Below are positions 5,450 to 62,493 of a DNA stretch of 64,000 nt, piece after piece. Both the position numbers and the translations under genes were made by a program. This DNA is from Armillaria gallica (taxonomy: Eukaryota > Basidiomycota > Agaricomycetes > Agaricales > Physalacriaceae). The first letter of the stretch is position 1; each line of letters opens with the position of its first letter. The stretch lies in NCBI GenBank assembly GCA_037576215.1, contig JBANDB010000014.1, positions 1,922,001 through 1,986,000 on the forward strand, written 5' to 3'. The notes under the pieces are model-generated. The model was not told where the DNA came from. It did not search any database and worked only from the letters and a program-made list of their open reading frames with translations.

Positions 5450-6740
5450 CTAGTACAACATTGCTGCCTGGAAGAAACGTTCTCGCCTGAGCACAAAGTA
5501 CACTGCTCTTTTATGGGGTAGCTCGAATTCCTGTGCATTGTGATCAGCCGCGCGGTCTGCACAAGATACCGAAGACATACTCTGTTAAACTCTTGAGGCA
5601 GGTACGCGATAAGGCGAGGGATAATAGGCAGATCAGCGCGGGGCTCGCCAACGACGACCTCTGTCCTGGGTTCGCGAAGGAAGCACATATGCTTCATCGA
5701 AGTCATGATAGCGGTGACTGCAATTGTAGGGTCAGAAAATGACGAAGAATCTATGGGGCGGGTAGCTTACATCGCTGCCTGCCTCTGAATTTCTCTTCAC
5801 CGACGAGAAGGTGAGTACCTTGATCGTAGTCTCCCAGTCCACCAACATATGTTCCCATAGGGTCCTCTTTTACCCACGACATTTCGCCGTAACCTGCTGC
5901 TTCTCCGTTCCAAGATACAATGAACCCCATTATATGCAGGTCAGCCAGTCGATCCTTGAGGTATGCGCGATGATGCTCATCGTCACCTTTCTCTCTCCAG
6001 CCAACGTTCACACGATCGGAATTCTGCCAGCGTGTGTAGGCCTCGAAATGTGCAGGGTTCGATGCATCGATATGGGTGAATGTGAGGAGTTCACCCAGAC
6101 AGGCGATATATCGAGAATATATCACGGCTCCTGGTGCTGGTTTCGGTGGCCGAAGAGGATGTGTGGTCAAGACGTGAGGGCCACGGGTGAAAGACTGCAC
6201 GTAAGGAAAAAGTGATGGCAGCGGAGCCAGCGTCGGTGATGGGACAGGATCGCGCAGCCAGGATAATCCATGGGGTGCACCCGCACTCTGCCAGAACGCT
6301 GGACGAGAGAGAAGGAGAGTTGTTGGATTGGAGGCATCTGGTATATATCCCAGGCCGGTGTGAGTGAAGTAGTTCTGTAACTCGCCGGCATTGGATAATT
6401 TCTCATCAATCACCACAGGGACAACGTCCTCCTCATTCCTTCGTAGCCACAACGCGTAAACGGAGACCCAAAGGTCTCGTGTCGTCACCGGAGTCGTGCT
6501 CGAGATCAGCAGGACCGCTTCCGACACTGCCCGATCATCATTGACGATGCCGTACGGACTGACTCGCACAACACGCTCTTGCGGTGCAAAAGTGATCACA
6601 GAATTGTCGCTGGTAACAGCGATTGTCCCTTCTGTGTCCACACTATTCACCGAAGACCCATCCGGGAGCTTGAAAGTCTGTTCAGCTGGTGCGACGAAGC
6701 GCTCGGCGCGGTATCCAACAGGCGTTGTGGTAGAAGACAT
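5450..6740 (-). CDS. Siderophore N5-hydroxyornithine acyltransferase (SidF/Fer5/AlcB type)
   Basis: Three exons on the minus strand (6740-5771, 5717-5581, 5530-5450) sum to 1188 bp, 395 aa. The C-terminal 170 residues are an IucA/AlcB-type GNAT acyltransferase domain (Acyltransf_8): FTHIDASNP, WQNSDRVNVGW, MGFIVSWNGEAAGYGEMSW, the acyl-CoA loop VGEEKFRGRQR, and DPRTEVVVGEPRAD followed by FELPHKRAVYF near the C-terminus. Enzymes of this family transfer an acyl group such as acetyl, anhydromevalonyl or methylglutaconyl to N5-hydroxyornithine for hydroxamate siderophores (known for SidF, SidL, Ustilago Fer5). The N-terminal half is the divergent non-catalytic GNAT fold. It is divergent to an enoyl-CoA hydratase gene, with four ATCWGATAA sites between them. 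Which acyl group is used is inferred only from that neighbour. Confidence 0.87.
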
Positions 6741-6814
6741 AAGATAGGATCGATACAGGAGATATTTGACGTCGCTTTATGGTCCACGGTTGGGATTCGG
6801 AGGAGAATATGGAA

Positions 6815-6844
6815 ATCTGATAAGATTTCGGAACAATCTGATAA
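6815..6844. promoter_or_regulatory. Two ATCTGATAA iron-GATA sites
   Basis: ATCTGATAA occurs at 6815-6823 and again at 6836-6844, a centre spacing of 21 bp (two helical turns). ATCWGATAA is the extended site of the fungal iron-responsive GATA repressors (SreA/SRE1/Urbs1/Fep1 group). The pair lies 75-104 bp upstream of the acyltransferase ATG. Confidence 0.75.
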
Positions 6845-7300
6845 GATGCCGCGTTCACTATGGCCCGAAGTTACTGGAAAACGTACGTGAATTTCTCAAT
6901 CTCTGGATTTCAGTAAATAACTATGCGCGCCGCAGCATGTTTATTCATCACTGCGATTGAAAATTCCCAGCATTCATATCTAGATATAACTTCACCGTGG
7001 CCACAGAAAACACAGAACAGTACGCGGACGCCGGACGGCCTTTCAAAGTCTCAACGGTGATAGTGAATGGCGCCATCATGTGGTGCCAATTGCTGACAAT
7101 TTGAATATTTCGTTTCACTACCTGGAGACTCGCAAAACAGATGGCTTTCACCGGCGTCGCAAAACCGAATCATCGAGAATATAGCTGAACTTGTGCTAGG
7201 CGCCAGCCACGCCTAACCGATAAACTCGATTAACGTACAATTGGCTGGTTTGAGTGGGCCAAGGAACTTAGAAAGGCCAAGGTGCGTGATTACGGATGTA

Positions 7301-7358
7301 ATCAGATAAGATGTCTTCTGATGAGATCAATGTTTCGTTCTAGAATCTAATCAGATAA
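7301..7358. promoter_or_regulatory. Two ATCAGATAA iron-GATA sites
   Basis: ATCAGATAA occurs at 7301-7309 and 7350-7358, both perfect matches to ATCWGATAA on the plus strand. They lie 150-206 bp before the most likely hydratase ATG at 7507 (about 50-110 bp before the upstream ATG at 7409). Together with the pair at 6815-6844 they bracket the divergent promoter. Confidence 0.75.
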
Positions 7359-7506
7359 GGATCTGTCCGACAGAAGCCCAATCAAAGGCCGTCAGTGCGC
7401 GGTTCAAAATGTCCTGTCGCGTTCTGCTTTGGGGTCGATCTTTGCTTTGGTCTACCCCTCCGTTTACTCAATCCACAAAGAGAATCCTCCTAAAAATTTC
7501 GACGAA

Positions 7507-8575
7507 ATGCCCAGCGAGCCCACTCCTCAAGCTTACTTCCACAAAGTCCCTAATCTCAAGGGCGTGTACTGCATCGCACTGAACAGACCGAAATCGAAGA
7601 ATGCAATCAGTGTCCAGATGCTTCAGGTGTGCAGCCACGCCTTTTTTTATATGCAATACCGAAGGGTACTGCTAGGACATCGAGAACGCTATCCAACAGG
7701 CAGTCGAAGAACCATCGTATGTTGGATTTTCTTTCACAAGATAATGTCTAATGTGTCTGCTAGTCTTAACGTGCTCATATTCTACTCTTCCACTCCGGGT
7801 TCCTTCTGCGCAGGCGCGGACCTCATCGAACGGCGCTCCATGAATGAAGATCAAGTCCGCGACTTTCTTTCTCAACTTCGTCTAGTTTTCAGCAGCATCG
7901 ACCGCCTCATGTTCCCCACCATCTGCGCTATAGATGGTCCTGCGCTTGGGGAGGTCTGGAGCTTGCACTGACGTGCGATTTTCGTATATGTGGTGCGGCT
8001 CAAATGTCATAGTTCTTAGTTTCATAAAGATGATGTTTTTCGCAGCCCGAGATGTGACCAAGATCAGCTTCCCCGAAGTTCGCCTGGGGATTATACCAGG
8101 CGCTGGAGGTACACAGCGTGCTCCGCGCCTGATTGGGATGACCAAAGCGAAGGAGCTCATCTTTACGGGTCGTTCGCTCACCGCTTCCGATGCGCTGGAG
8201 TTGGGTGAGTGCCTGCCGAGCCGAAAGCAGAGAATCAAATATTGAAATGACAATGCTTGGCAGGTCTCGTCGATTACCTTGCGGATTCATCTTCTACTGC
8301 CTATGAAAGGGCACTGAAGCTAGCTGAAGAGATGGCACACAGTGGTGAGTGTCTCTCCCTTATGTTTGGGTGTCAAGGACTGAAGTTCTACATGCATAGC
8401 ACCATTGGCTCTACGTGCCGCAAAGACAGCTATTTCTCGATCCTGTGAACTGCCACTAGAGTCCGCGCTCGACCATGAACGCCTGTGCTATGAGCCTCTA
8501 TTAGACACACAAGATCGCTTGGAAGCCCTAGATGCATTCAAAGAAAAGAGGTCCCCGGTTTTCATTGGAAAGTAA
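7507..8575 (+). pseudogene. Enoyl-CoA hydratase/isomerase with a one-base frameshift
   Basis: Six exons (7507-7626, 7676-7716, 7764-7992, 8046-8204, 8264-8344, 8400-8575) spell a complete crotonase-fold protein: LNRPKSKNAIS, the oxyanion segment GSFCAGADL, CAIDGPALG, then SFPEVRLGIIPGAGGTQR and TGRSLTASDALELGLVDYL. It resembles methylglutaconyl-CoA hydratases. The exons sum to 806 bp, one short of a multiple of three. The shift sits in the G run at 7948-7951, exactly where the family reads ALGGGLELAL; without the base the frame stops at 7969-7971. It is either a recent null allele or a homopolymer sequencing error. A different frame from the ATG at 7409 has presequence-like character, so the N-terminus is uncertain. 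It is divergent to a siderophore acyltransferase, which suggests a Fer4/SidH-like role; ordinary leucine or fatty-acid catabolism is the alternative. Confidence 0.85.
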
Positions 8576-30544: not shown

Positions 30545-31833
30545 ATGGCACCAATTCGCCCACATCATAAGACACGAAGCGGATGTAAAACATGCAAGCA
30601 ACGCAAAGTTAAGGTGAATGCTCCCCCAGTCCTTTGTTCAGCTGCTAACGCTGAAATGATTTGCAGTGCAATGAAGATTTTCCCATATGCAAGAACTGCA
30701 CCAAGAGAGGGATAGAATGTTCCTGGAGTAATCCTAGCACAAAACATGGATCAACAGCTCTGGCACGGTCCGTGCTGGTCGACCAATCAAGTTCCCTCTC
30801 CACAGTACCGAGGTGGACCGGCACAGGTTCCTCCGACCTCTTGACGCTGGAATTAATGCACCACTACTCCACCTCCACTTCATACTCTCTCGCTTCAGAT
30901 CCCGGCGCTTCGGGAGTCTGGAGAACCATCATTCCAAAAATGGCCTTTGACCCGCACAATCAGTGTCTCCTTCACGCCATTCTCGCTTTTTCTGCTCTTC
31001 ATATCTACAGCACCGATTCAACGTCCCCTTTCGTGGATCGGTACGCCTCGGCTGCAAGCGCCTATTATTACCGGGCGAAGAGAAGCTTGCACATGGCAGA
31101 CACGGAGGAGACTGCAGATGTAAACGCCGTCCTCATTGCATTGTCTCTCGTCGCGCGATACGAATTTGCTACATCGACCGTAGCATTCCCTCACTTGGCA
31201 GGTGATTGGTATATCACCATCCGCTCAATCCGTCGTAACATTCATGAAAAGAACCGGTCACAGCTCCAGATCGCTGTTCTGCGTTCGTTCATAGCTGCTA
31301 TGGCACCGTCACTTCTATCCACCCCTTTGAAGGAACAGTTCCCATCATCCTTGCGGACACTCCTTAGCACAGCCCACCCAGCTCCAGACGTTGAGGAGTT
31401 GCACGACGTGTCGGTACGCACCGCCTATGAGGATTCGATATCTTTCCTGGAGCGTGCGTGGAGAGCTTCGTTCAACGAATGTGTCGGCATATGGTGGTAT
31501 ATAATGCCCAATACGTTCTTTCGTTTATTGACAGAGGGGAGACCCCGTGCTCTCATCATATTGGCGCACTACTGTGTTATGATGAAGCACGTCACTCAGG
31601 ATGGCCCCTGGTGGGCGAAGAAGCAGTGGGGAACTGAAGCAACGAGGATCGTCTCTATGCTTGACTCGCAATGGGCACCATGGTTAGAATGGCTCTTGAG
31701 TCAGCTGGATGACGTGCATGATACCCAGCATTTGGATTTCACAGGCGCAGATTTTCTGGATTGGTTGGACGGGGCATCGATGCAGGAGACGGTATTGGGA
31801 CAGCCTAGTTTGCACTCCACTGCCGAAAGATAA
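30545..31833 (+). CDS. UPC2-like Zn2Cys6 transcription factor, copy 1
   Basis: Two exons (30545-30613, 30667-31833) give 411 aa. The N-terminal binuclear zinc cluster CKTCKQRKVKC-x5-CKNCTKRGIEC is split by the intron between the third Lys and Cys, as in the other copies. The body is a fungal-specific TF region of the sterol-uptake-control (Upc2-like) type found in Agaricomycetes: LLTLELMHHYSTS, VWRTIIPKMAFD, CLLHAILAFSALH, ALIILAHYCVMMKH and GPWWAKKQWG. The zinc cluster has N where D is usual (KCNED), and all six Cys are intact. Members of this family activate genes in response to sterol or lipid status; here that is inference. It is the first of three tandem paralogues interleaved with RTA1-like exporters. 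Confidence 0.9.
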
Positions 31834-31937
31834 TATTTTTGTATATATACGCCACAACTGGAGATTCGAAGTAAGTTTGCCACAGGAATCTAACCTCATT
31901 TAGTGGTCGGAACATAGCAGGAAGTACACTGTGCGAA

Positions 31938-31951
31938 ACGGGCCGGACTTC
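31938..31951 (+). promoter_or_regulatory. ACGGGCCGGACTTC promoter element, copy 2
   Basis: Identical to copies 1 and 3; it ends 67 bp before the ATG of the second, broken regulator copy at 32019. Confidence 0.6.
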
Positions 31952-32018
31952 GCGCGTAAAGGAGGTCGATCGTTGACTCGAAATTGCTTTCAACACCACC
32001 AACATCATACTACACAAC

Positions 32019-33321
32019 ATGGCACCAATTCGTCCACACCATAAGACGCGCAGTGGATGCAAAACGTGTAAACAACGTAAAGTCAAGGTATCTACTCCGT
32101 CAGCCCTCAAATTGTTCAACTGACGCTAACGTTGAAATGATATGCAGTGCGATGAAGATTTTCCCACATGCAAGAACTGCACCAGGAGAGGATAGAGTGC
32201 GTCTGGGGTCATGCCTCAAAACACGACGCAAAACGGCCCGGGGATCCATGCTAGTCGAGCAATCCAGTTTGAACGAAAACCCCCTCTCCAAATGGCCTGT
32301 CGCAGATTCATCATCCGACCTGTTGACGCTGGAATTAATGCACCACTATTCCACATCTGCTTCTTCCACTCTCTCTTCGGATCCTGGCGCGGCAGCGATC
32401 TGGAGAAGTACCATTCCAAAAATGGCCTTTGATCCCCAAAACCACTGTCTCCTCCATGCCATTCTCGCTTTCTCTGCTCTCCATATTCACCGCGTGGACT
32501 CCACGTCCCCTTTCGTCGATCGTTACGCTGTAACCGCAAGCGCTTATTATTACCAGGCCAAACTCAGCGTACACTTGGCAGACACGGAGGAGACAGCAGA
32601 CATCAACGCCGTCCTCGTCGCGTTATCTCTTATCGCGCGGTACGAATTCGCCGCCTCAGCTGAAGTATTCCCTTACTCCAGCGATTGGTATATCACTATC
32701 CGCGCCATCCGCCGTAACATTGAAAAGAACCGGACGCAGCTCCAGAACAGTGTTCTACATTCGTTCATAGCTGCATTGGCACCGACACGTCTATCCACGC
32801 CTCTGGATGATCAGTTTCCATCATACTTGTCGACACTCCTAAGCACAACACATCCGGCGCCAGACGTCGAGGAGTTGCGCGACGGGTCGGTGCGTGCCGC
32901 CTATGAGGATTCGATATATTTTCTGGAGCGATCGTGGAGGTCATCTTTTAATCGATGCGTGGGTATATGGTGGTACATGATGCCAACTACGTTTTTTCGT
33001 TTACTGGCAGAGGAGAGACCCCGCGCACTCATCATATTGGCGCACTACTGTGCTATGATGAAGCGCGTAACTCAGGATGGCCCCTGGTGGGTGAAGAAAC
33101 AATGGGGTAACGAGGCTGCGAGGATCGTCTCTATGCTTGATGATGCCCAATGGGCACCGTGGTTAGGGTGGATCTTCAGTCAGTTGGATGAAGTGCCACA
33201 TAATAGGCACGCTCTGGATTTTTCAGGTGCAGATCTTCTGAATTGGTTCAACGGGCCATTAACACAGGGGGCGATTATAGGACAAACTCTTTCTAGTTTT
33301 CACCACGGTACCGAAAGATAG
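32019..33321 (+). pseudogene. UPC2-like Zn2Cys6 transcription factor, copy 2, frameshifted
   Basis: A tandem paralogue of the gene at 30545, with the same exon layout (exon 1 32019-32087, exon 2 from 32148). The first five zinc-binding Cys are present, but a missing G in AGAGGATAG (copy 1 has AGAGGGATAG) puts a TAG at 32193-32195 just before the sixth Cys. Downstream, from about 32245 to 33321, the body is open in yet another frame (LLTLELMHHYSTSASS, CLLHAILAFSALHIHR, GPWWVKKQWG), so at least one more shift lies at about 32220-32245. The body is otherwise complete and highly similar to copy 1. It may be a recent pseudogene, a source of a Zn-cluster-less protein from an internal ATG (32250), or an assembly error. 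Confidence 0.8.
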
Positions 33322-33424
33322 TACTTTTGTATCTATATATACGAATTGTATACCATTTAAAAGATGAAGAGTCCCGTAAAAAAGTCTATATGGTAGATGG
33401 CCACATATAGTCCCTAAACGTATT

Positions 33425-34564
33425 CTAGTATTCTCGTACGGCCGAGTAATGCAGTGGAACAGTGCTCGCGACTTCTTCACGGTTGCGACTTCCCATTCTA
33501 TACTCCTCGTTATCTCGTAAGTAATCGCTAGGATGGTAGATGTTGAACAGAGTGACGACCCCAGCCATAAGAACTGAATCGAAAATGTAGAGCCACTGTC
33601 ATTAGTTCAGAACGAATATTCAGACTGGAAACGAGAATGTTACTCACCACTTCACTCCTCATAAGGTAACCATCATTTCCTCCAGCGTACTCTACGACTC
33701 GGAAGACGGATCGCACCATGATCATGGTGCTCGCGGCATAGAGGGCATACATGAAGATTCTCCAACTATTCTTCTCGATGACGATGGGAACCACTCGCAT
33801 ACGATAGTGAAAGACGGCAGACACGAGGATGAACCCTCCAAACCATACTATCTGGACAACCAGTCCGATGATAATGACGGTCTGGCCAAGATTGACATCG
33901 CTCTGATCCTTAGCCTTCGCCAGGAGGCCCCCACCTGTGAACTGTCGGTTTTACTCCTCAATGAAGGCCAAGTAAACTCACCGCCGGATTGCATAAGGAA
34001 ACTCAGGACATCACCGGCGACGAAAAACTTGGTGAGCCAATTGATACGTATGAGAGAGAACCGTTCGGCGTGGAGCTTGCGTATTAGCCGTCCGAGTACG
34101 ACATATATCGACGCGGCCTTTAGAAGAATTGAAAAACTATCCAGTGAAATATGAAGACGAGAAAGGCGCACAAACAGAGCCGGAGCTACTAAAAGCAGAA
34201 CGGACTGCACAACATAGGGTCCCACCGCTGTGATGTTATTGTGCGACACGATTCGACCGATATATCCTATGCCCTCCACTACAAAAGCATCAGTGACCCG
34301 AGACGATGCGACGGTAAATCAACGCGACTTACTTAGTCCACCGACGACCATAGCGGAGAAATACCAGGATCGGCCCCGGTAATTCTTCCAAGCCAGAAAC
34401 ATAGTCAAAGCAAGGAATATCACTGCGAATATACCGGCAGCTACGACACTGGGCGTGTACCTGTAGAAGAAACATATTAGTGTTAGCTTGATTTCTATGG
34501 CGAAGAGGGTGTGCAGTCACCGATAAAGCTTGAAGCCGGCGAACGTAGTGTTGGAGTCGCTCAT
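33425..34564 (-). CDS. RTA1-like lipid-translocating exporter, copy a
   Basis: Six minus-strand exons (34564-34521, 34460-34333, 34278-34172, 34117-33982, 33934-33648, 33595-33425) sum to 873 bp, 290 aa. It is a seven-span protein of the fungal RTA1 family (Rta1/Rsb1/Pug1). Diagnostic stretches: YTPSVVAAGIFAVIF, MEGIGYIGRI, LLLVAPALF-AASIYVVLGR, LTKFFVAGDVLSFLMQSGGGG, VQIVWFGGF, RSVFRVVEYAGGNDGYL and the end WLYIFDSVLMAGVVTLFNIYHPS. Known relatives export long-chain bases or confer resistance to sterol analogues and other lipids. Its start is divergent to the third regulator gene, with a 596-bp shared promoter. CGG-N3-CGG repeats lie about 100 bp upstream. Intact. Confidence 0.9.
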
Positions 34565-34662
34565 GATACAGAAAAGCCACCAGGACTAAAAAGAAAGAGA
34601 GTACGACCATGGCGTGTAGAACGCGTTCAGAAATATAGCGAACGCGCACTCGGATTCGAGTT

Positions 34663-34683
34663 CGGACTCGGACTCGGACTCGG
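34663..34683. promoter_or_regulatory. CGG-N3-CGG direct repeats before RTA1-like copy a
   Basis: Four CGG triplets separated by ACT, 99 bp upstream of the exporter ATG, preceded by degenerate TCGGAT/TCGAGT hexamers. The regular spacing fits direct-repeat Zn2Cys6 sites; a simple hexanucleotide microsatellite is the alternative. Confidence 0.5.
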
Positions 34684-35057
34684 ATATGACGACATCGCTA
34701 GTTTTTCATCCATTTTGGTGCACTCGGAGGCAAAAACGCTGCGTTTCGCTGTGAATTTGATTTTCGTGTTGAAAGCAAAAAGACAAGAGGACAGCACTGT
34801 TATTGTCGTGGGAACATTTGCCTCTTCAAGTTACGGCAAAGTTACGGTCCACAGAACTACAGAAGCAGGCCAAGATGCACAGATATAGAAGACCTGTCTC
34901 GAAGCATCTGGAGGATTTCCTCACCGATTGAGTAGCTATTCAGGTCTCTCATAGACATGAAAACGATACATACTTGTTCAGGGACTGAGTACTGAGAGAC
35001 GAAGTACTTAGTACTTATCCAACCGAAATGGGAACTTTGCCCAGCTTCGCCAAGGCT

Positions 35058-35071
35058 ACGGGCCGGACTTC
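35058..35071 (+). promoter_or_regulatory. ACGGGCCGGACTTC promoter element, copy 3
   Basis: It ends 89 bp before the ATG of regulator copy 3 at 35161, the same distance as copy 1. Confidence 0.6.
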
Positions 35072-35160
35072 CGTGTTAAGGCGGTGCTTAGTAACCCGGT
35101 ACAATTTGAAGGAGTCGCTATACAACACTTTTCGACTCACATACTGATACAGCATTTCCT

Positions 35161-36433
35161 ATGCCACCAATTCGCCCCCACAATAAGACACGAACTGGAT
35201 GCAAAACATGCAAACAACGCAAAGTTAAGGTGAGTGCTCCACCAGCCCTGGTTGAGTTGATGTTTAAATTGGACTTAGTGCGACGAAGAACTTCCCGTGT
35301 GCAAGAACTGTACAAGAAGAGGAGTAGACTGTATCTGGATCAACGATACTCCGCAACTTGAACATGATTCAGCAGCGCCAGGGGTATCTACCCAGACTGC
35401 ATCAAGTTCATATGAAAATCCCCCTTCCACAATATCGAGGTGTACTGGCGAAATCTCATTTAATATGCTGGATCTCCAACTGCTGCACCACTATGTTACC
35501 GCTACTTCGTGCTCCCTTTCTTCTGATCCCGCCACGGCAAGCGTATGGAGGAATACCGTCCCCAGACTCGCGTTTGACGTCAGAAACCAATGTCTCCTCC
35601 ACGCTATCCTCGCGCTGTCGGCGCTCCATGCTCACCATGATGACCCCACTGCAAGCCAGTACGCCATAGCCGCGAGCGCCCACCATTTGCAGGCGAAAAC
35701 GGGGGTGCATAAGGCAGACGTGGATGCGAAGGCGGATATCGATGCCGTCTTTATCACCTTGGCTCTCGTTGCGCTTTATGAATTCGCTACGTCATCCACA
35801 GTCACCTCGTACTCGAGCGACCGGCAAATCACGTTTCGTGCTATCCCTCCCAAGGTTGCGAAAAACTGGACGCGGCTTCGGGGTGGCGTTCTGCGTCCGC
35901 TGTTCGTCACCCTGGCGCCAACAATCGAATCTACACCCCTTGAAGGGCAATTCCCATCATCACTGTCGACTCTTTTGAGCACGATGCACTCACCACCGGA
36001 GATTGAGGAGCTGTACGACGTATCGGTGTACGCGGCATATGAAGATTCGATCCACTTCTTAGAGATATCATGGAAAGTGTCATTCGAGAAAGGCTACTGT
36101 ATGCGTGCGTCATGCCTGTGGTGGTCAAAGGTATCAAATACGTTCATTCGCCTATTGATGGAGCGGAGACCGCGAGCACTCATTATCTTGGCGCATTACT
36201 GCGTTATGATGAAGCGGGTGGCGATGGATGGCCCGTGGTGGGCGAGAAAGCAGTGGGGCAATGAGGCAGCAAGGATTCTGACTTCGCTTGATGCTCGATG
36301 GACGCCCTGGATAGGATGGCTTTCGAATCAGTTGGACGCGCCATGTGAGAACCAAACATTTGACATCACGGGTACGGATTTCATGAATTGGTTGAGCGAG
36401 ACGGGGTCATTAGAGCAGGAGGGTATCATATGA
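35161..36433 (+). CDS. UPC2-like Zn2Cys6 transcription factor, copy 3
   Basis: Two exons (35161-35229, 35279-36433), 407 aa. The zinc cluster CKTCKQRKVKC-x5-CKNCTRRGVDC is complete with the same intron position as its paralogues. The body keeps LLHHYVTATS, VWRNTVPRLAFD, CLLHAILALSALHAHH, ALIILAHYCVMMKR and GPWWARKQWGNEAARIL. It is clearly more diverged from copies 1 and 2 than these are from each other, so it is an older duplicate. It is divergent to exporter copy a and convergent with exporter copy b (118 bp between stops). A repeat of its last bases and 3' flank occurs at 41129, next to exporter copy c. Confidence 0.9.
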
Positions 36434-38857: not shown

Positions 38858-40898
38858 ATGATGGGCACGCCGCTGAGCACGGAAAACAGCGGCACCGAGC
38901 ATACCGTAAAGTCTCGTGATGCGGCAACGGATTGCATTGCAGCACATCATAACAAACCATCATTCTCAATGCATAGCGACGGCGTGGAAAATTTGTCGCA
39001 ATCTACCTCGGATAGCTTTTTTGAAGACGAAGGGACTAGCTCACCAACGTTGAGTAAAGATGGGGGTCGTTTTGACTTTGACGAAAACCTGCCGAAGAGA
39101 GTAAGCAAACGCAAAGGCGAGTTAAAGGAGTCACTAAAGGGTAGTTCTACAGGGAAAGGATGTTGAATCCCGTTATGAAAATCTTCCCGAGGTCACACTA
39201 TCCGCATTTGACGAGACAGGCAGAAAGGAAGATGACATCAAGGTTATCAAGCAACGTCGATTTACTGGCAGGAAGCCCGTCATCTCATCGCATTGTGCAA
39301 ATCAAAGTTGCTCTGAACTCACCATCGATGATGTCCTAGGGCAGCTTAATGTCATCCTTGGGACGACATACCCTCTGAATGATGCGATGGTCTCCTTGTT
39401 GAAATCACTCATGGACAAACACCCAGACTTTGGGACGGTATTCGCATACGTACGGCCATTGTGGTATGACGACCTGTCATCGATTGAAGAGGAGCTGCAC
39501 GACCGGGAGGAGGAAGATCGGAGAATGCGAGAGAAAGCATTGGAGGGCGACATCATCAAGGACAACGAGGTCCGGCCTCGTCGAGTGTTCGATCTGTACA
39601 GCTATCGTGCCGTGCCGTGGTGGGTGGCTGCTATGCTGATAGGACTTCCTCGCGCAGTGTCACACGCATGGATGGACACGAAGGATAGAGAATCGGTCTG
39701 GACACACATCAATGGAAAACAGTGGCCAGTTATTCTTCCCTCGGGTATCGACCCACGCCTACTTCGCAATGAGTGGCTCAATGAAGGGTGTCAATACGTC
39801 TGGGTAGATGTGTTCTGCCTCCGACAAGAGGGAGGTCTGAGAGAGGACCTGCGCGTCGAGGAATGGAAGCTGGACGTACCCATGATTGGGTTCGTGTATG
39901 GGGCACCAGCGAGACTAGTCTGGAATGCTGGTCCCATCATCTGCTATTTGAGTGGTTTGGGGCGGCCGCTGAGTAGCAATGTCGACATGACAAGCGACAG
40001 GAGCTGGTTTCGGCGGGCATGGACACTTCAGGAAACAAGTACAGACTGCGTTATTGCAGGACTGACTGATGAAGAGACTACAGAACAGCTTGAGTATCTG
40101 CAAGCCGATATTCAGAATGCCGTGCCGCCTCTCGCTGGACTCTCGGTTTTCACCACCATCCCCTCTTCACTTGTGATGCGAGTGCTTTCTGATATGCAAA
40201 AGCGCGCATCGAGCTATCCAATTGATCGTATTGCCGGACTCGCCTATATATTTCAGGGTTCCCAAGTCCCGGCATACTATAAATCATACACGGAGGAGGA
40301 AGCCTGGTTGAAACTTTGGAGAGTGTCGAGCTTGGAGTGCCGTGCTCAGATATTCTTCTTTTTTCCTCAGCCCGGACGCGGTGAGCAGAAATGGTGTCCT
40401 ACTTGGGAGCAGGTCTTGTCTGAGGAACTTCCGGTTGTGGAATGTGATCCTACCGAGAAGTGGTACGGCCGCGTTTACTATGAAGAGGAGGGCCCCGGCC
40501 GCCCTTTCGCCTTCAGGGGCCACTGCATCAAAGATGGCCATGTGTGTGGATTAGCCAAGGAGGACCCTTCAGTGCGTGTGAGAAGTGGAGAGCTCTGAAT
40601 CACCGACGGCTCAGGGACAACACATACATTCCGCATTTCTGCAAACCACCAATACCCTATACCCGAGGATTCGTATGAGCTATGGGGTACCTCTGGCCAA
40701 GGGTCGACTTGGACTTCGTTCCGGGAACCCAGAGCTCTCCTGAAGTACTGGGTACTTGGGTACCGCCAAGGGACCAAGTTCGAGAAGTTTTCGATATTTC
40801 AGATAACTGAAGAAGATGAAAGGCAACGTCTGATAAAATCGGGACTGGTGGAGGGTATGAACACTGAAGGCGAGCGACTTCGAACTGACCTCTGTTGA
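38858..40898 (+). pseudogene. HET-domain (heterokaryon incompatibility-like) protein with internal TGA
   Basis: Two exons (38858-39100, 39153-40898). The frame encodes a disordered N-terminus, then the Agaricomycete HET-domain core: RAVPWWVAAMLIGLPRAVSH, NGKQWPVILPSGIDPRLLRN, EGCQYVWVDVFCLRQEGG, WFRRAWTLQE, YPIDRIAGLAYIF, CPTWEQ. HET proteins trigger cell death on non-self fusion in filamentous fungi. A TGA at 40596-40598 ends a 562-aa product, but the same frame stays open for exactly 100 more codons (40599-40898). These read as the family's C-terminus: HTFRISANHQYPIPEDSYEL, KYWVLGYRQGTKFEKFSIF, then TGA. The stop is thus a point nonsense change in an otherwise intact gene, with no shift. 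It could be a null or shortened allele, or a readthrough site. Confidence 0.85.
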
Positions 40899-57196: not shown

Positions 57197-57414
57197 GGTT
57201 ATGGGTTTCTCTTGACCCACCTATCTCGCGACTGTCCAATCGCCACGTCACCAACTTCATTTTTCCACTTGTCCACAGGTCGTCCAGCCTGTTCCTCACA
57301 TCCATATCCTGACCGACACGTCCCACCGTCTTGCGTGTTTTGGTTTCCCCTCTGCACCCAGACACAACGCCGATCAATTATTTCGGATCAATATCATAAT
57401 ACTTCCGTGGAACT

Positions 57415-60400
57415 ATGTCAGATCAAGGCAACTTCCATAACCTCGTCCAGGGTCTGAACAACATTCTCGGTTCATCCTCATCTCACGACAGGAATCAAGA
57501 CAGCACGAATACACATCAGGTAACATCGACGTCTGCCACGTTTCCTCGGTCTGCCCCAGACATAACACATTGGCCTTCAAATTTTCCTTCTACGTATGCT
57601 TTTTACCCTACAATTTCTGATCCAAACATGAACCCTTACAATGACCCGTCAAACTTCCAAATGCAATACCATCCACCCCATTACATACCGAACAATCAAC
57701 AACATTTTCTTCCTTTTCCATCTCTTCAATCTACTGATATCAATTCTCAGCAGAACGGCGTGGAAGGCAATTTAGATACAAATCTCCTCAACTGTCCCCT
57801 CCCTCCTTTACCTACAAACGCTCCTCCACCTCCGCCTCCTGTACCCCCCCCACCTCCCTTACCACATCGTCCTCCTCCCCCTCCCATTCCCAACCGACAA
57901 ATTCCTCCTGTACCCCCACCTGTCCCTCCTAATATACCTCTACCACCTGTCTTCCACCAAAACATCCCCACCGCCCCTCCCACATACACGTACCTACCAC
58001 AACCAGTTTACATACAGCCGACCATGCCGCATATGCCAAATTTTCAATTCTACAATCAAAATCAACAACCGTTTTACCCATATATACATACAAACCAACC
58101 GTCTCTAGATACATCTTTTCCGCAAACTTCTCATATACCTGAACTAAAAACAAGGGCTGACTGGGGACCATGGCAACTCAGTGTTATGAATGTGCTAATG
58201 TCTAGGCTACTTAACACGCACATCTGCGATCCTCCAGCACCTAACGTCCCACGAGATCTGTTCAACACGCCGTCATATCCCCCTGCATTACCACAGAATC
58301 CGACGCCACAACAATACAATGAATGGATTACGTGGAACAAGAGGGATGCAGTCGCATATGGAGTAATAACAGCTCGCCTATCAAGGCAAATTCTAGGCAT
58401 GGTCCCTGTACAGAATGATCCCACCACTGGAGTACGCTGTACAGCACGAGAAGCTTATCACTCCCTCCGCCGTCGCTATGGGGGTGGAAACCTCCAATAC
58501 GCCATCCTAGAACACCGTCGCATCTCCACCACTCCTTGCATATCAATAAGCGCCATTCCTACATTTGTCCAAAACTGGATGAATCTTGTACAGACCTTGA
58601 AGTGCACGGAAGGCTACCCCCTTTCTTATGCAACCCTCAGCGTCGACATCACCAACATGCTGCCATCCCAATTCTCTGAGATGCGCTGCAAGGTGATCAC
58701 AGATCTCAGGAACCCCACGCTATTCTCGAATGTAACGTTTGATGACCTCCTCTCAGACATCTTAGACCAAGCAAACGGCATGCTCCTCAACCGAGAACTT
58801 ACGAACTCTTTCCGCAACCCAAAGATGTCTCCAAAGCCTCGACCCCAATGTGGCAACCCCAAATGTCCCAACCCCATTGGACACACGACGGCAAACTGCT
58901 GGAACGAGGGTGGCGACGACCCAGGAGGAAAAGAAAGATACAATGAGAGGAAAACCAAAACCCCTGCTCGTGCGAACCTTGCCTCATCCGAACTCACTAC
59001 AGAACACGATGATTCTAACACTGCTGAGAATACCGATACAAATACCGTCGAATGTAGTGAATCCCCCGAGATAAATGATGACATCTTTTACTCATACCCA
59101 TCGTCTTCTCCTGAGAGCATTGAACCCAGAGCGAATGCACTTCTCGAACTCCGCGAATCTGATCCCAAAGCCTACTTCTCTGCAATTCGCATCTTCAAGG
59201 GCCTACTCGATTCAGGAATGACTCATCATATTATCAGAGATTGATCCCTATTCCACACGTATGATGAAGCTGGTGCTATCCCTGTGACAACTTGAACCGC
59301 AAATTGCGGTACACTAGAAACCAAAGCACTAGGCGAAACGAGATTCACAGTAGACATCGATGGCAGGACAACCACTGTCGTTCTATGTGAATGCTTACAT
59401 GCCCCTGGAGCTCCAATCAACCTCATTTCGGTCAGTGCTCTGACCGAAAACGGAATGTTCATCGGTTTTGGGAAGAACAAAACCACTTGCTACTTCCCCA
59501 AATACCACAAAACACTCTCTGGCCTATTGTTCCAAGCCAACGTCGTAGGCCGACTATCTTTTCTCAGCTGCAACTTCATCGTTCCATCCCCCGAATCTCC
59601 GTCTGCATTCGCAATGCTACCCACCTTCCAGAAACCTGAATACGATGCATATTTGTGGCACTGCAGGGCTGGACACCCGAGCCAGGAGACCACAAAACGA
59701 CTAGTATCTGGTAAATCCAGGGTAACGGGCATTAAATGGAACGGAGAATCACCTCATGAGTTTTGCCCTTCCTGTATCATCGGAAAACGCCAACAGAGCC
59801 CTTACGATCACAATGCACATCGCGAAGCCAACCCCCTTGGTCTACTGCATATGGACACATGTGGACCCATGCCCGTGAAAACCCCGCAAAAACAGGAGCA
59901 CTTTGTAGCAATTCTGGACGATTGCACAACGTACAATGATACCAAACTCCTTGTTAAGCGAAACCATGTTTGCGGCGAATTCAAAGACACACAGGCGAGG
60001 TGGGAGAACCAGACTGAACATAAAGTCAAAAAGGTCAGATGTGATGGCGCGAAGGAACTCACCAAAGGGGACCTCAAAAGACATTTCAAAGACTCGGGTA
60101 TTGAACTACAGGTGACTGCCCCCTATGCACACCAGCAGAATGGGAAAGCCGAACGCTTCATAAGAACACTTGAAGACGACGCTCAAACCTTGATCGCCGA
60201 CTCCGGCCTCCCAATGTCATTCTGGGGTGACGCAGTATTGACAGCTGCATATACCAGATGTAGGATCCCTACTTCAACTCTCCCTGATGGCAAGACCCCA
60301 TATGAGGCTTTCCACCACAAGGTCCCTGACCTATCACACCTACGTCGATGGGGGTGTCAATGTTTTGCAGCTATTCCCCCTGAACTCCGCTCTAAGGCTG

Positions 60401-62493
60401 GCCCCCGCAGATTCGAGGCGATCTTCGTGGGCTATGAGGAAGGACGAATCGGATGGCGTGTATGAGACCTACAAGGAAAATACCACTTCTCACGCGACGT
60501 CGAATTTAACGAAAACACTCCTGGCCGACTGAGCAACAAACGTAAATCAGCTGTTGACATTGCAATCAAATCAAATATCCAAACTGAAGACGCAGACGAA
60601 TGCTCCACCGATGACCCCAGACCCAAACGCAACATACGGCCCACTGAAAAAATGAACCTCCTGCCACAGGGCCAGAAACTAGGGTCAATCCTACCTCGCC
60701 TGCAGACTGCTGATGCCTCCGTTGCTTTTGCCTCGTTCTTTCTAGCTGAGATGATTGACGAATCATCTAACCTAGATGAATTTATTCCATCCCAACCCTA
60801 TGCTATGCTCACCACCTCTGCAATGAAATTGTCCAAGCCACGCACCTGGGATACTACCAAACCCCCTCTTTCCTACAAGGAAGCCATGGCCCGGCCTGAT
60901 TGCGCACTGTGGCAAGTTGCAATTGACGCCGAATACAAGAACCTTGTAGACAAAGAAGTCATAGTCGAGAGCTTCCTTCCCCATGGAAAGAAAGCCATCG
61001 GTGCACGCTGGACATTCACAAAAAAGTCACACCCTGTCGTTCTCGAGAAGGCCAGACTCGTCGCTCAGGGATTCGCCCAATGCCCCGACGATTATGGAGA
61101 AACGTATGCTCCTGTTGCAAAAATTGTCAGCGTCCGGATCACCCTCACCTTAGCTGCGAAAGATGACCTTGAGCTATTCACCTTCGATGTCAAAGCTGCT
61201 TTCTTGAATGCGCCTCTGAACCAAGAAGTCTACATAAAGCAGATACCAGGATTCCCCCTCTCTGATCCAAAGAAAGTCCTCCGCCTCCAGAAGGCCCTGT
61301 ACGGCCTCAAACAGTCGTCAAACGAGTGGTTCAAAACCCTCTGTTCCACACTGGAATCAATCGGACTCGAAAGTTGCATCGTCGATCCCGCCGTGTTCTA
61401 TGGTTGCTGGTCTAGCCCTCCAGATCGCAGCATACCCATGCCAGAGAATGGCGATGACTTATTCATCATCATCCCTGTGCACGTAGATGACGGTCTATCT
61501 GCATCGAATTCTGCGCCCCTCTATCACTGGATCATCGGTCAGATGAACAAGAGGTTCAAAGTAAATGATCTTGGTCCTGCGGATGTATTCCTCGGAATCA
61601 AAATCGAGCACGATCGAAGCAAACGTCTCTTGTGGATTTCACAACAAGAATACATTGAAGATCTGCTGCAATCCTATGACCTTGAAGATGTTAATCCAAC
61701 CTCTGTCCCACTATACAAAAAGCTCCAAGCATACCAATCATCTGCCAATACCCTCCCCGACGTCTCCGATGCTAATCTCAAGCACTACTTCCAAAGACTT
61801 AATGGCCAATTACTCTACCCTGCCGTATGCACACGTCCTGATATTTCGTTCACATCCGCTGCTCTTGGACAATTCAATGCCAACCCAACTCGAGCCGTTA
61901 CACTCGCTGCGAAAGGTGTACTCCGGTACCTAGCAGGTACACGAGACCTCGCTCTGCAGTATGGGGGTGCCAACGCATCTGAGACCACCGCTCATCTTGA
62001 TGTTGATCCCATGAATATCGCATTCACCGACGCCGACTGGGCCACTGATGAATCAGACAGAAAAAGCTTCTCGGGATACGCCATATACATATTTGGTGGC
62101 CTCATATCATGGTCGAGCTGCAAGCAGAAGTCAACCTCGCTCTCATCCACAGAATCTGAGTACATGGCCCTCACACACCTTATGAAAGAAGTATTATGGA
62201 TCAAACTCTTCTTACAAGCTCTCTCTCTCCCCATGCCCAAACCTTTCCCCTTGCTATGCGACAATGACAGCTGCTTGACGATCGCTAATTCTCAATCCAA
62301 CTCTCCCCGCTTAAAACACGTTGACATCAGATATCATTTCATAAGAGAACAAATCAGAAACGGCACCTTTTCTACCCATTGGATTCCCACACGTTCCATG
62401 ACCGCCGACATCATGACGAAGCCACTCCCAGTCATCCTCCACAAGTCCCATATCACTGGGCTAGGACTCGTTTCGCGGTCACATCTTCGCTGA
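57415..62493 (+). pseudogene. Copia gag-pol polyprotein with three in-frame TGA codons
   Basis: One reading frame of 1693 codons. Gag: Pro-rich N-terminal third (57780-57990), then a CX4CX5HX4C knuckle (CGNPKCPNPIGHTTANC). Protease: LDSGMTHHIIRD. GAG-pre-integrase: WHCRAGHPSQETT. Integrase core: HMDTCGPMPVKTPQKQE, CDGAKEL and APYAHQQNGKAER. Reverse transcriptase: ALWQVAIDAEYKNL, TFDVKAAFLNAPLNQEVY and VHVDDG (the YVDD position). RNase H: FTDADWATD, STESEYMAL and KHVDIRYHFIREQI. TGA codons at 59242-59244, 59293-59295 and 60463-60465 interrupt protease and pol; no shift was seen. At the third, relatives have an Arg codon (GWRV-R-DLQGKYHFSRDV), so CGA to TGA is the likely change. As it stands the element cannot make full Pol without readthrough. 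Confidence 0.9.

What the first reader, a model, noticed from the sequence alone, without database searches (positions are those of the whole stretch)
5450..8575. Divergent siderophore pair with four perfect iron-GATA sites
A SidF/Fer5-type hydroxyornithine acyltransferase and an enoyl-CoA hydratase are divergent, and the 766-bp gap holds ATCTGATAA twice and ATCAGATAA twice, the extended ATCWGATAA site of SreA/Sre1/Urbs1-type iron repressors. Four 9-base perfect matches on one strand in 766 bp are far above chance. In Ustilago, Fer4 (hydratase) and Fer5 (acylase) make the acyl group of ferrichrome A, so this pair may mark a methylglutaconyl-type siderophore branch in a mushroom, without the synthetase gene in view.
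Basis: partly seen in the sequence, partly recalled or inferred. Interest (0 to 1): 0.8.

Follow-up and report, generated by a model that had tools for sequence, protein, structure and literature searches.

The report
Iron-controlled siderophore gene pair in Armillaria
Two back-to-back genes in a honey mushroom (Armillaria) look like the part of an iron-scavenging pathway that makes and attaches the side chains of ferrichrome A, and they carry the same iron-switch-like DNA sites as other genes of the pathway that lie elsewhere in the genome.

Summary
The 766-bp gap (6741-7506) between two divergent genes holds four perfect ATCWGATAA sites, the only four in the 64-kb window: one pair 75-104 bp upstream of the acyltransferase ATG, one 149-206 bp upstream of the hydratase ATG. 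Nearest proteins make the genome Armillaria.

The acyltransferase is 63% identical to Ato1 of the Omphalotus ferrichrome A cluster. The hydratase is of the methylglutaconyl-CoA hydratase (AUH) family: not the mitochondrial enzyme but a separate old paralogue without presequence, apparently on one contig with the acyltransferase in three other Agaricomycetes.

The missing parts exist elsewhere: a ferrichrome-type NRPS (two allelic copies), an ornithine monooxygenase, and an SreA/Urbs1-type repressor. Tight direct pairs of the motif occur at 11 places genome-wide; four are these loci (two of them alleles), a fifth precedes a transporter.

Missed: the assembled hydratase has a one-base frame break in exon 3. 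The mitochondrial paralogue breaks at the same motif, so I favour an assembly fault over a dead gene. Not tested: product, iron response, repressor binding, orthology to Ustilago Fer4.

The parts
5450..6740 (-). Ato1/Fer5/SidF-type N5-hydroxyornithine acyltransferase, exons 6740-5771, 5717-5581, 5530-5450, 395 aa
   Evidence: model; 96% to an Armillaria mellea protein over the full length, 63% to ATO1_OMPOL; PF13523 on the window's own exon; SidF 7qf6 and Acetyltransf_8, with the relative P0001
7507..8575 (+). AUH-type (methylglutaconyl-CoA hydratase family) paralogue, exons 7507-7626, 7676-7716, 7764-7992, 8046-8204, 8264-8344, 8400-8575; no presequence; the donor of the third intron (at 7993) is uncertain
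   Evidence: model; relatives and trees; N-termini of relatives; human AUH 1hzd
7948..7951 (+). G run in hydratase exon 3 where the reading frame shifts by one as assembled (stop follows at 7969-7971); the relatives looked at read through
6741..7506 (.). 766-bp bidirectional intergenic region
6815..6823 (+). ATCTGATAA iron-GATA-type site (75-83 bp upstream of the acyltransferase ATG)
6836..6844 (+). ATCTGATAA iron-GATA-type site (96-104 bp upstream of the acyltransferase ATG)
7301..7309 (+). ATCAGATAA iron-GATA-type site (198-206 bp upstream of the hydratase ATG)
7350..7358 (+). ATCAGATAA iron-GATA-type site (149-157 bp upstream of the hydratase ATG)

Best explanation
This is the acyl-supply and acyl-transfer module of a ferrichrome-A-type siderophore pathway in Armillaria, repressed by iron through an SreA/Urbs1-type GATA factor. 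Inferred chemistry: the hydratase works in the dehydrating direction on HMG-CoA outside the mitochondrion and yields 3-methylglutaconyl-CoA; the acyltransferase puts that group on N5-hydroxyornithine made by the ornithine monooxygenase (same contig C14, 1.5 Mb away); the NRPS (C6, allele on C16) joins three such units with other amino acids. Inferred control: with iron replete, the two-finger repressor sits on the paired ATCWGATAA sites and shuts the genes; with iron short they are expressed. Shown here: gene identities by homology, shared promoter pairs, presence of the repressor gene, separate ancestry of the hydratase from mitochondrial AUH, and absence of a presequence. Not shown: binding, iron response, substrate, product. 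The frame break in the assembled hydratase is taken, with less certainty, as an assembly fault.
For: Acyltransferase 63% to Ato1 of Omphalotus, whose cluster was described as the ferrichrome A cluster (title of Welzel 2005, seen in the reference list of PMC2644324). Hydratase: its two best solved relatives are 3kqf and human methylglutaconyl-CoA hydratase 1hzd; both crotonase catalytic Glu positions (recalled, not looked up) are kept in the relative P0122 aligned to 1hzd. Tree: 16 siderophore-type rows against 26 mitochondrial-type rows, split at 99/98. Presequence-like N-termini in 0 of 17 siderophore-type and 21 of 26 mitochondrial-type proteins. ATCWGATAA pairs also lie 95-162 bp upstream of the NRPS ATG (the same pair in both alleles) and a cluster about 340-410 bp upstream of the monooxygenase ATG (start codons chosen by eye). 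Genome-wide, direct pairs with 3-64 bp between them occur at 11 places; 4 are these loci, two of them alleles. Repressor candidate with two GATA fingers and CPGDGRCDGTGG...C..C between them. In vivo sites of SreA orthologues in U. maydis and S. pombe fit the motif (PMC2610380, passages).
Against: The hydratase frame is broken as assembled, and a longer form of the same context occurs 46 times genome-wide against 41 for the reversed control, so no blanket loss of that context explains it. Six of the 11 pair places are not shown to be siderophore genes (four looked at in 3-kb pieces show no iron gene by eye; two could not be read). The reversed-pattern control was itself frequent for the 3-33 bp gap (135 against 9; for the 34-64 bp gap 2 against 8). 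The FTR1 iron permease matches lie at none of the pair places. The C9 transporter was not confirmed as a siderophore transporter. In Fistulina the two enzymes are listed on different contigs. No expression or chemical data.
Confidence: 0.76

Rival explanations
1. The pair is a siderophore module, but the acyl group is anhydromevalonyl (fusarinine/coprogen type, as with SidH/SidF of Aspergillus) and not methylglutaconyl.
For: The nearest solved structure of the acyltransferase relative P0001 is SidF, the anhydromevalonyl transacylase. Agaricus bisporus is reported to make fusarinine C (PMC8152254, passages).
Against: The hydratase belongs to the methylglutaconyl-CoA hydratase family and the acyltransferase is 63% identical to Ato1 of a ferrichrome A cluster. 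The NRPS shows five C regions (one under its Pfam cut-off) with T-C repeats at the end, as ferrichrome synthetases do. Neither enzyme ends in a peroxisomal signal by eye, as also reported for basidiomycete SidF homologues and U. maydis Fer4 and Fer5 (PMC3709128, passages).
Confidence: 0.12
2. In this strain the hydratase is a recently dead gene, so the siderophore side chain is no longer made, or comes from mitochondrial methylglutaconyl-CoA or acetyl-CoA. (This can be true together with the siderophore-module reading of the locus.)
For: One-base frame break in exon 3. Runs of five G or C are not depleted in the assembly pieces read, and the longer context is not rare genome-wide. Indels between the NRPS alleles were few, 11 in about 18 kb.
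Against: The rest of the gene is open and 99% identical to that of A. borealis over 267 aligned columns. The mitochondrial AUH gene of the same assembly has the same break at the same motif, which two independent inactivations would hardly give. A shared systematic error would not show in an allele comparison.
Confidence: 0.2
3. The hydratase is just a leucine-catabolism gene that happens to neighbour the acyltransferase, and the motif serves other GATA factors such as nitrogen regulators.
For: AUH is a catabolic family, the genome has other GATA-finger genes (13 matches in all), and ATCWGATAA also occurs elsewhere (1,744 matches).
Against: A separate mitochondrial-type AUH gene exists in the same genome (C8). 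Grouping the Armillaria and Desarmillaria hydratases of both kinds together is rejected (p-AU 5.8e-6). The hydratase has its own site pair, apparent linkage recurs in three other genera, and the same kind of pairs stand at the NRPS and monooxygenase.
Confidence: 0.06
4. The four sites are a chance cluster.
For: Four matches in 64 kb are reached in 3 of 100 shuffles.
Against: All four lie in 766 bp (P about 2.4e-9), in two pairs, each near one ATG, and such pairs recur at the other siderophore genes.
Confidence: 0.01

Closest known systems
Fer4 (enoyl-CoA hydratase) and Fer5 (hydroxyornithine acylase) of the Ustilago maydis ferrichrome A cluster
   Same: Same two enzyme kinds; an SreA/Urbs1-type regulator gene in both; ferrichrome A as likely product
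   Different: Here the NRPS and monooxygenase lie elsewhere in the genome; the hydratase is an AUH paralogue whose relation to Fer4 was not testable
Ato1 / Fso1 / Omo1 ferrichrome A cluster of Omphalotus olearius (Welzel 2005, title seen only; cluster make-up recalled)
   Same: Acyltransferase 63% identical; ferrichrome-type NRPS, perhaps with a degenerate third A domain in both (Fso1: PMC2644324, passages)
   Different: Acyltransferase paired with a hydratase and unlinked from the NRPS
SidF / SidH of Aspergillus fumigatus (anhydromevalonyl supply for TAFC)
   Same: Acyltransferase family; hydratase and acyltransferase used together; SreA motif
   Different: No peroxisomal signal seen here; hydratase of the methylglutaconyl-CoA family; different expected acyl group
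Mitochondrial methylglutaconyl-CoA hydratase AUH (human 1hzd; Armillaria P0154, P0184)
   Same: Same family; the mushroom enzymes listed are about 56-62% identical to the window protein
   Different: Separate old clade, no presequence, iron-GATA-type sites in the promoter, next to the acyltransferase
NRPS-dependent siderophore gene cluster of Armillaria (Narh Mensah et al., cited in PMC10700112; original paper not held)
   Same: Probably the NRPS found here on C6/C16
   Different: The passages read name neither this acyltransferase/hydratase pair nor the motif

Membership tests
Fer5/Ato1/SidF-type hydroxyornithine acyltransferase | Acetyltransf_8 (MbtK/IucB-like) domain over its cut-off | tested here: met
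   window's own exon 75.6 bits, cut-off 27; 112 bits for the 96% relative P0001
Fer5/Ato1/SidF-type hydroxyornithine acyltransferase | Closer to characterised siderophore acyltransferases than to others | tested here: inconclusive
   63% to ATO1_OMPOL, 54% over 86% to a fer5-named Thecaphora protein, SidF 7qf6 best solved relative; but no tree against non-siderophore acetyltransferases was built
Methylglutaconyl-CoA hydratase (AUH) family | Sequence similarity to AUH above other crotonases | tested here: met
   3kqf and human AUH 1hzd are the two best solved relatives; none of the 25 NCBIfam models shown per protein reached its cut-off for four relatives, the mitochondrial AUH P0154 included
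Methylglutaconyl-CoA hydratase (AUH) family | Hydratase activity on 3-methylglutaconyl-CoA | not testable with these tools
   needs an enzyme assay
Ustilago Fer4 orthologue | Reciprocal best relation to Fer4 | tested here: inconclusive
   Fer4 sequence not available; no smut protein seen among the 120 best profile hits of 7,994
Ferrichrome A pathway | Ferrichrome-type NRPS and ornithine N5-monooxygenase in the genome | tested here: met
   two A domains matched Pfam, a third seen by eye only, one of five C regions under its cut-off
Ferrichrome A pathway | Genes clustered with the NRPS | tested here: not met
   NRPS on C6/C16, monooxygenase at C14:431-432 kb, this pair at C14:1.93 Mb
Ferrichrome A pathway | Ferrichrome A made under iron starvation | not testable with these tools
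   needs LC-MS
SreA/Urbs1 iron regulon | ATCWGATAA sites in promoters of siderophore genes | tested here: met
SreA/Urbs1 iron regulon | Repressor with two GATA fingers and a cysteine-rich region between them | tested here: met
   C9:1322147-1323394
SreA/Urbs1 iron regulon | Iron-dependent repression and binding | not testable with these tools
   needs RNA-seq and binding assays

The most novel reading that the evidence does not exclude
Mushrooms built their methylglutaconyl-CoA supply for ferrichrome A by an old duplication of the leucine-catabolism hydratase AUH: one copy lost its mitochondrial presequence, came under the iron repressor and next to the acyltransferase, and now runs in reverse on HMG-CoA from the mevalonate pathway, independently of Ustilago Fer4 and Aspergillus SidH.
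Probability: 0.4. Interest if true: 0.6.

Novelty: new member of a known kind. Interest (0 to 1): 0.45.

Why it matters
It proposes the acyl-supply step and the control of the NRPS siderophore route in Armillaria, a genus of mostly plant-pathogenic fungi in which a proteomic study could not conclusively prove expression of the siderophore clusters (PMC12973365, abstract start and passages), and shows a dispersed pathway held together by one cis-motif. If the AUH-duplication reading is right, it is a clear case of a catabolic mitochondrial enzyme re-used in the opposite direction for iron acquisition, tying it to sterol precursors. The tight-pair signature also offers a quick way to propose iron-regulon members in a mushroom genome.

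Tried and rejected
Chance cluster of sites: rejected by genome-wide density and recurrence at other siderophore genes. Recent Armillaria-specific duplication of AUH: rejected (p-AU 5.8e-6). Second, sub-cut-off Acetyltransf_8 hit on C1: read, by eye an ordinary GNAT, not pursued. Condensation hit on C1:4593522 (L031): by eye an amino-adipate-reductase-like protein with a terminal reductase, not the siderophore NRPS. Context-specific sequencing loss: not supported as a blanket effect, so the cause of the frame break stays open. PF06609 search, hoped to confirm the C9 transporter: that gene is not among its four hits, and PF07690 matched below its cut-off, so the siderophore-transporter label rests on resemblance seen by eye. 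FTR1 matches do not sit at pair places. The two unexplained pair places C1:3436935 and C2:1910930 could not be read. Inverted pairs, HapX and the NIS clusters were not searched. Rows dropped: the first tree used 57 of the 120 proteins listed, the second 41 picked. Wheat- and Miscanthus-labelled rows of 434-444 aa (P0135, P0174, P0241), two of which score among the siderophore-type set, were left out of both trees and not explained.
Full report
What is there. The window is contig C14:1922001-1986000 of an 86-Mb, 28-contig genome. Its acyltransferase is 96% identical to an Armillaria mellea protein and its hydratase 99% to one of A. borealis over 267 aligned columns (92% in the listing, where the A. 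borealis model holds an extra stretch), so the genome is taken as Armillaria. The acyltransferase runs 6740 to 5450 on the minus strand in three exons (395 aa); the hydratase 7507 to 8575 on the plus strand in six. The gap of 766 bp holds ATCTGATAA at 6815 and 6836 and ATCAGATAA at 7301 and 7350, the only ATCWGATAA sites in 64 kb. Each gene has its own pair: 75-104 bp upstream of the acyltransferase ATG and 149-206 bp upstream of the hydratase ATG.

Chance. The genome has 1,744 matches on both strands (reversed control 1,329). That gives 0.0155 expected in 766 bp, P of four or more about 2.4e-9, and 0.0003 such stretches expected genome-wide. The count for the window alone is weak evidence (3 of 100 shuffles reach four), and plain HGATAR is not enriched.

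The rest of the pathway. The genome has an ornithine monooxygenase split over exons at C14:431378-432226 (three weaker Lys_Orn_oxgnase matches on C1 and C12 were not pursued), and a large NRPS at C6:113-129 kb with an allelic copy on C16 (97.3% and 99.0% identity over about 9.2 kb each). Pfam on its exons gives A, T, C, A, T, C, then three T-C units, one of whose C matches is under the cut-off. A third A domain gave no Pfam match in the exons given and is seen only by a motif recognised by eye; the third A domain of Omphalotus Fso1 is described as degenerate (PMC2644324, passages). The order fits ferrichrome synthetases. The window locus itself occurs once in the assembly, so the haplotypes are only partly resolved.

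One motif joins the loci. The NRPS has two ATCTGATAA sites 95-162 bp before its ATG, and the same pair is in the C16 allele; the monooxygenase has a cluster of ATCWGATAA about 340-410 bp before its ATG (start codons chosen by eye). Direct pairs with 3-33 bp between them occur at 7 places genome-wide (9 matches), and with 34-64 bp at 6 places (8 matches): 11 different places. Four are the siderophore loci (window, monooxygenase, NRPS, NRPS allele). A fifth, on C9, precedes a protein that I take by eye for a siderophore transporter of the major facilitator kind; PF07690 scored under its cut-off and PF06609 did not list it. Four places (C1:986693, C3:4306605, C3:4943013, C18:405740) show no iron gene by eye in 3-kb pieces, and two (C1:3436935, C2:1910930) could not be read. 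The reversed-pattern control had 135 matches for the shorter gap and 2 for the longer; the excess for the shorter gap is unexplained, perhaps a repeat, and makes that control useless there. FTR1 iron permease matches lie at none of the 11 places.

The repressor. Of 13 GATA-finger matches, those at C9:1322147-1323394 are two fingers of the TPLWRRD type with CPGDGRCDGTGGSSACSGC between them. Two fingers with an interjacent cysteine-rich region are the features given for SreA/Urbs1 orthologues, Cir1 of Cryptococcus lacking the first finger (PMC2610380, passages). A palindromic ATCAGATAA lies about 1.1 kb before the first finger; the gene's start was not determined. The same paper states that in vivo sites of the orthologues at U. 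maydis sid1 and S. pombe str1 and fio1-fip1 comply with ATCWGATAA.

The hydratase. By sequence it is closest among solved structures to 3kqf and to human methylglutaconyl-CoA hydratase. Mushrooms also carry a mitochondrial AUH; the present genome has one on C8. In a tree of 42 rows the siderophore-type set (16 rows, window included) is split from the mitochondrial set (26 rows) at 99/98; the earlier quick tree of 58 rows gave a split of 21 and 37. The rows are a selection (57 of the 120 proteins, then 41), no outgroup was used, and the Peniophora row P0224 is a long branch. Forcing the Armillaria and Desarmillaria rows of both sets together is rejected, p-AU 5.8e-6. None of 17 siderophore-type proteins has a presequence-like start (3 or more R/K and no D/E in the first 25 residues), against 21 of 26 mitochondrial ones. 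By hand from the listings, 11 of the 14 named genera with the siderophore-type hydratase also appear with an acyltransferase of 57% identity or more; the lists are cut at 120, so absences mean little. A profile of the clade showed no smut protein in its best 120 hits, so Ustilago Fer4 is perhaps not a close member, but Fer4 itself was not available.

The frame break. In exon 3 the frame shifts by one in a G run at 7948-7951, and a stop follows at 7969-7971. A. borealis, Desarmillaria, Hymenopellis and an unnamed database protein (P0133) read through. The mitochondrial AUH gene on C8 breaks at the same motif, with the stretch around it otherwise as in A. ostoyae and A. gallica. Two independent losses at one motif are unlikely, so I favour an assembly fault. 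Against this, runs of five G or C are not depleted in the pieces read, the longer context is as frequent as its control (46 against 41), and the NRPS alleles differ by few indels (11 in about 18 kb). I leave it open at about 3 to 1.

How it most likely works. Inferred from Fer4/Fer5 (review PMC10098057, passages): HMG-CoA is turned by the hydratase into methylglutaconyl-CoA (the review's spelling varies), Fer5 puts it on hydroxyornithine, and the NRPS assembles ferrichrome A. Here the missing presequence places the hydratase outside the mitochondrion, where HMG-CoA of the mevalonate pathway is made (recalled). Iron control by the SreA-type factor is inferred from motif and gene presence alone.

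What is known. Armillaria has been reported to hold one NRPS-dependent and two NRPS-independent siderophore clusters (PMC10700112, PMC12973365, passages); the original NRPS paper is not held. Searches for siderophore with enoyl-CoA hydratase, ferrichrome and basidiomycet (6 papers), for methylglutaconyl-CoA hydratase with siderophore (9 papers) and for ferrichrome A with Armillaria (3 papers) listed no paper whose title or abstract start describes this pair; of these 18 listed papers I looked at passages of three (PMC3709128, PMC10098057, PMC7725599). The library leaves out most subscription journals.

Verdict. It is a new member of a known kind (an iron-controlled ferrichrome-A-type module), with a dispersed layout and a dedicated AUH paralogue as its distinctive points.

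Noticed in passing
window 6815, 6836, 7301; NRPS, monooxygenase and repressor loci: Of 29 ATCWGATAA matches printed (both strands counted, so palindromes count twice), 12 are followed by GAT (ATCWGATAAGAT), 3 of 4 in the window; about 1 in 64 would be expected. Perhaps a longer true motif; not tested genome-wide.
   Followed up: partly
L041 about 1328 (C8:3048 kb) and window 7948-7951: Mitochondrial AUH and its siderophore paralogue show the same one-base frame break at the same motif in this assembly.
   Followed up: partly
C6:112-131 kb and C16:1.437-1.457 Mb (L026-L029): The NRPS region is present as two near-identical copies (97-99%), while the window locus occurs once: the assembly is partly haplotype-resolved. 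A GH7-like cellobiohydrolase gene (by eye) lies just downstream.
   Followed up: partly
window 57400-62490: Ty1/copia-type retrotransposon remains (gag_pre-integrase, SH3_retrovirus and RVT_2 over their cut-offs).
   Followed up: no
window 30655-36430: Repeated Fungal_trans_2 / Zn2Cys6 transcription-factor-like frames, followed by a HET-domain frame at 39138-40595.
   Followed up: no
C1:3436935 and C2:1910930: Two further places with tight ATCWGATAA pairs whose genes could not be read; candidates for other members of the iron regulon.
   Followed up: no
P0135, P0174, P0241: Wheat- and Miscanthus-labelled proteins of 434-444 aa rank among the fungal hydratases; contamination, fused domains or something else was not looked into.
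   Followed up: no
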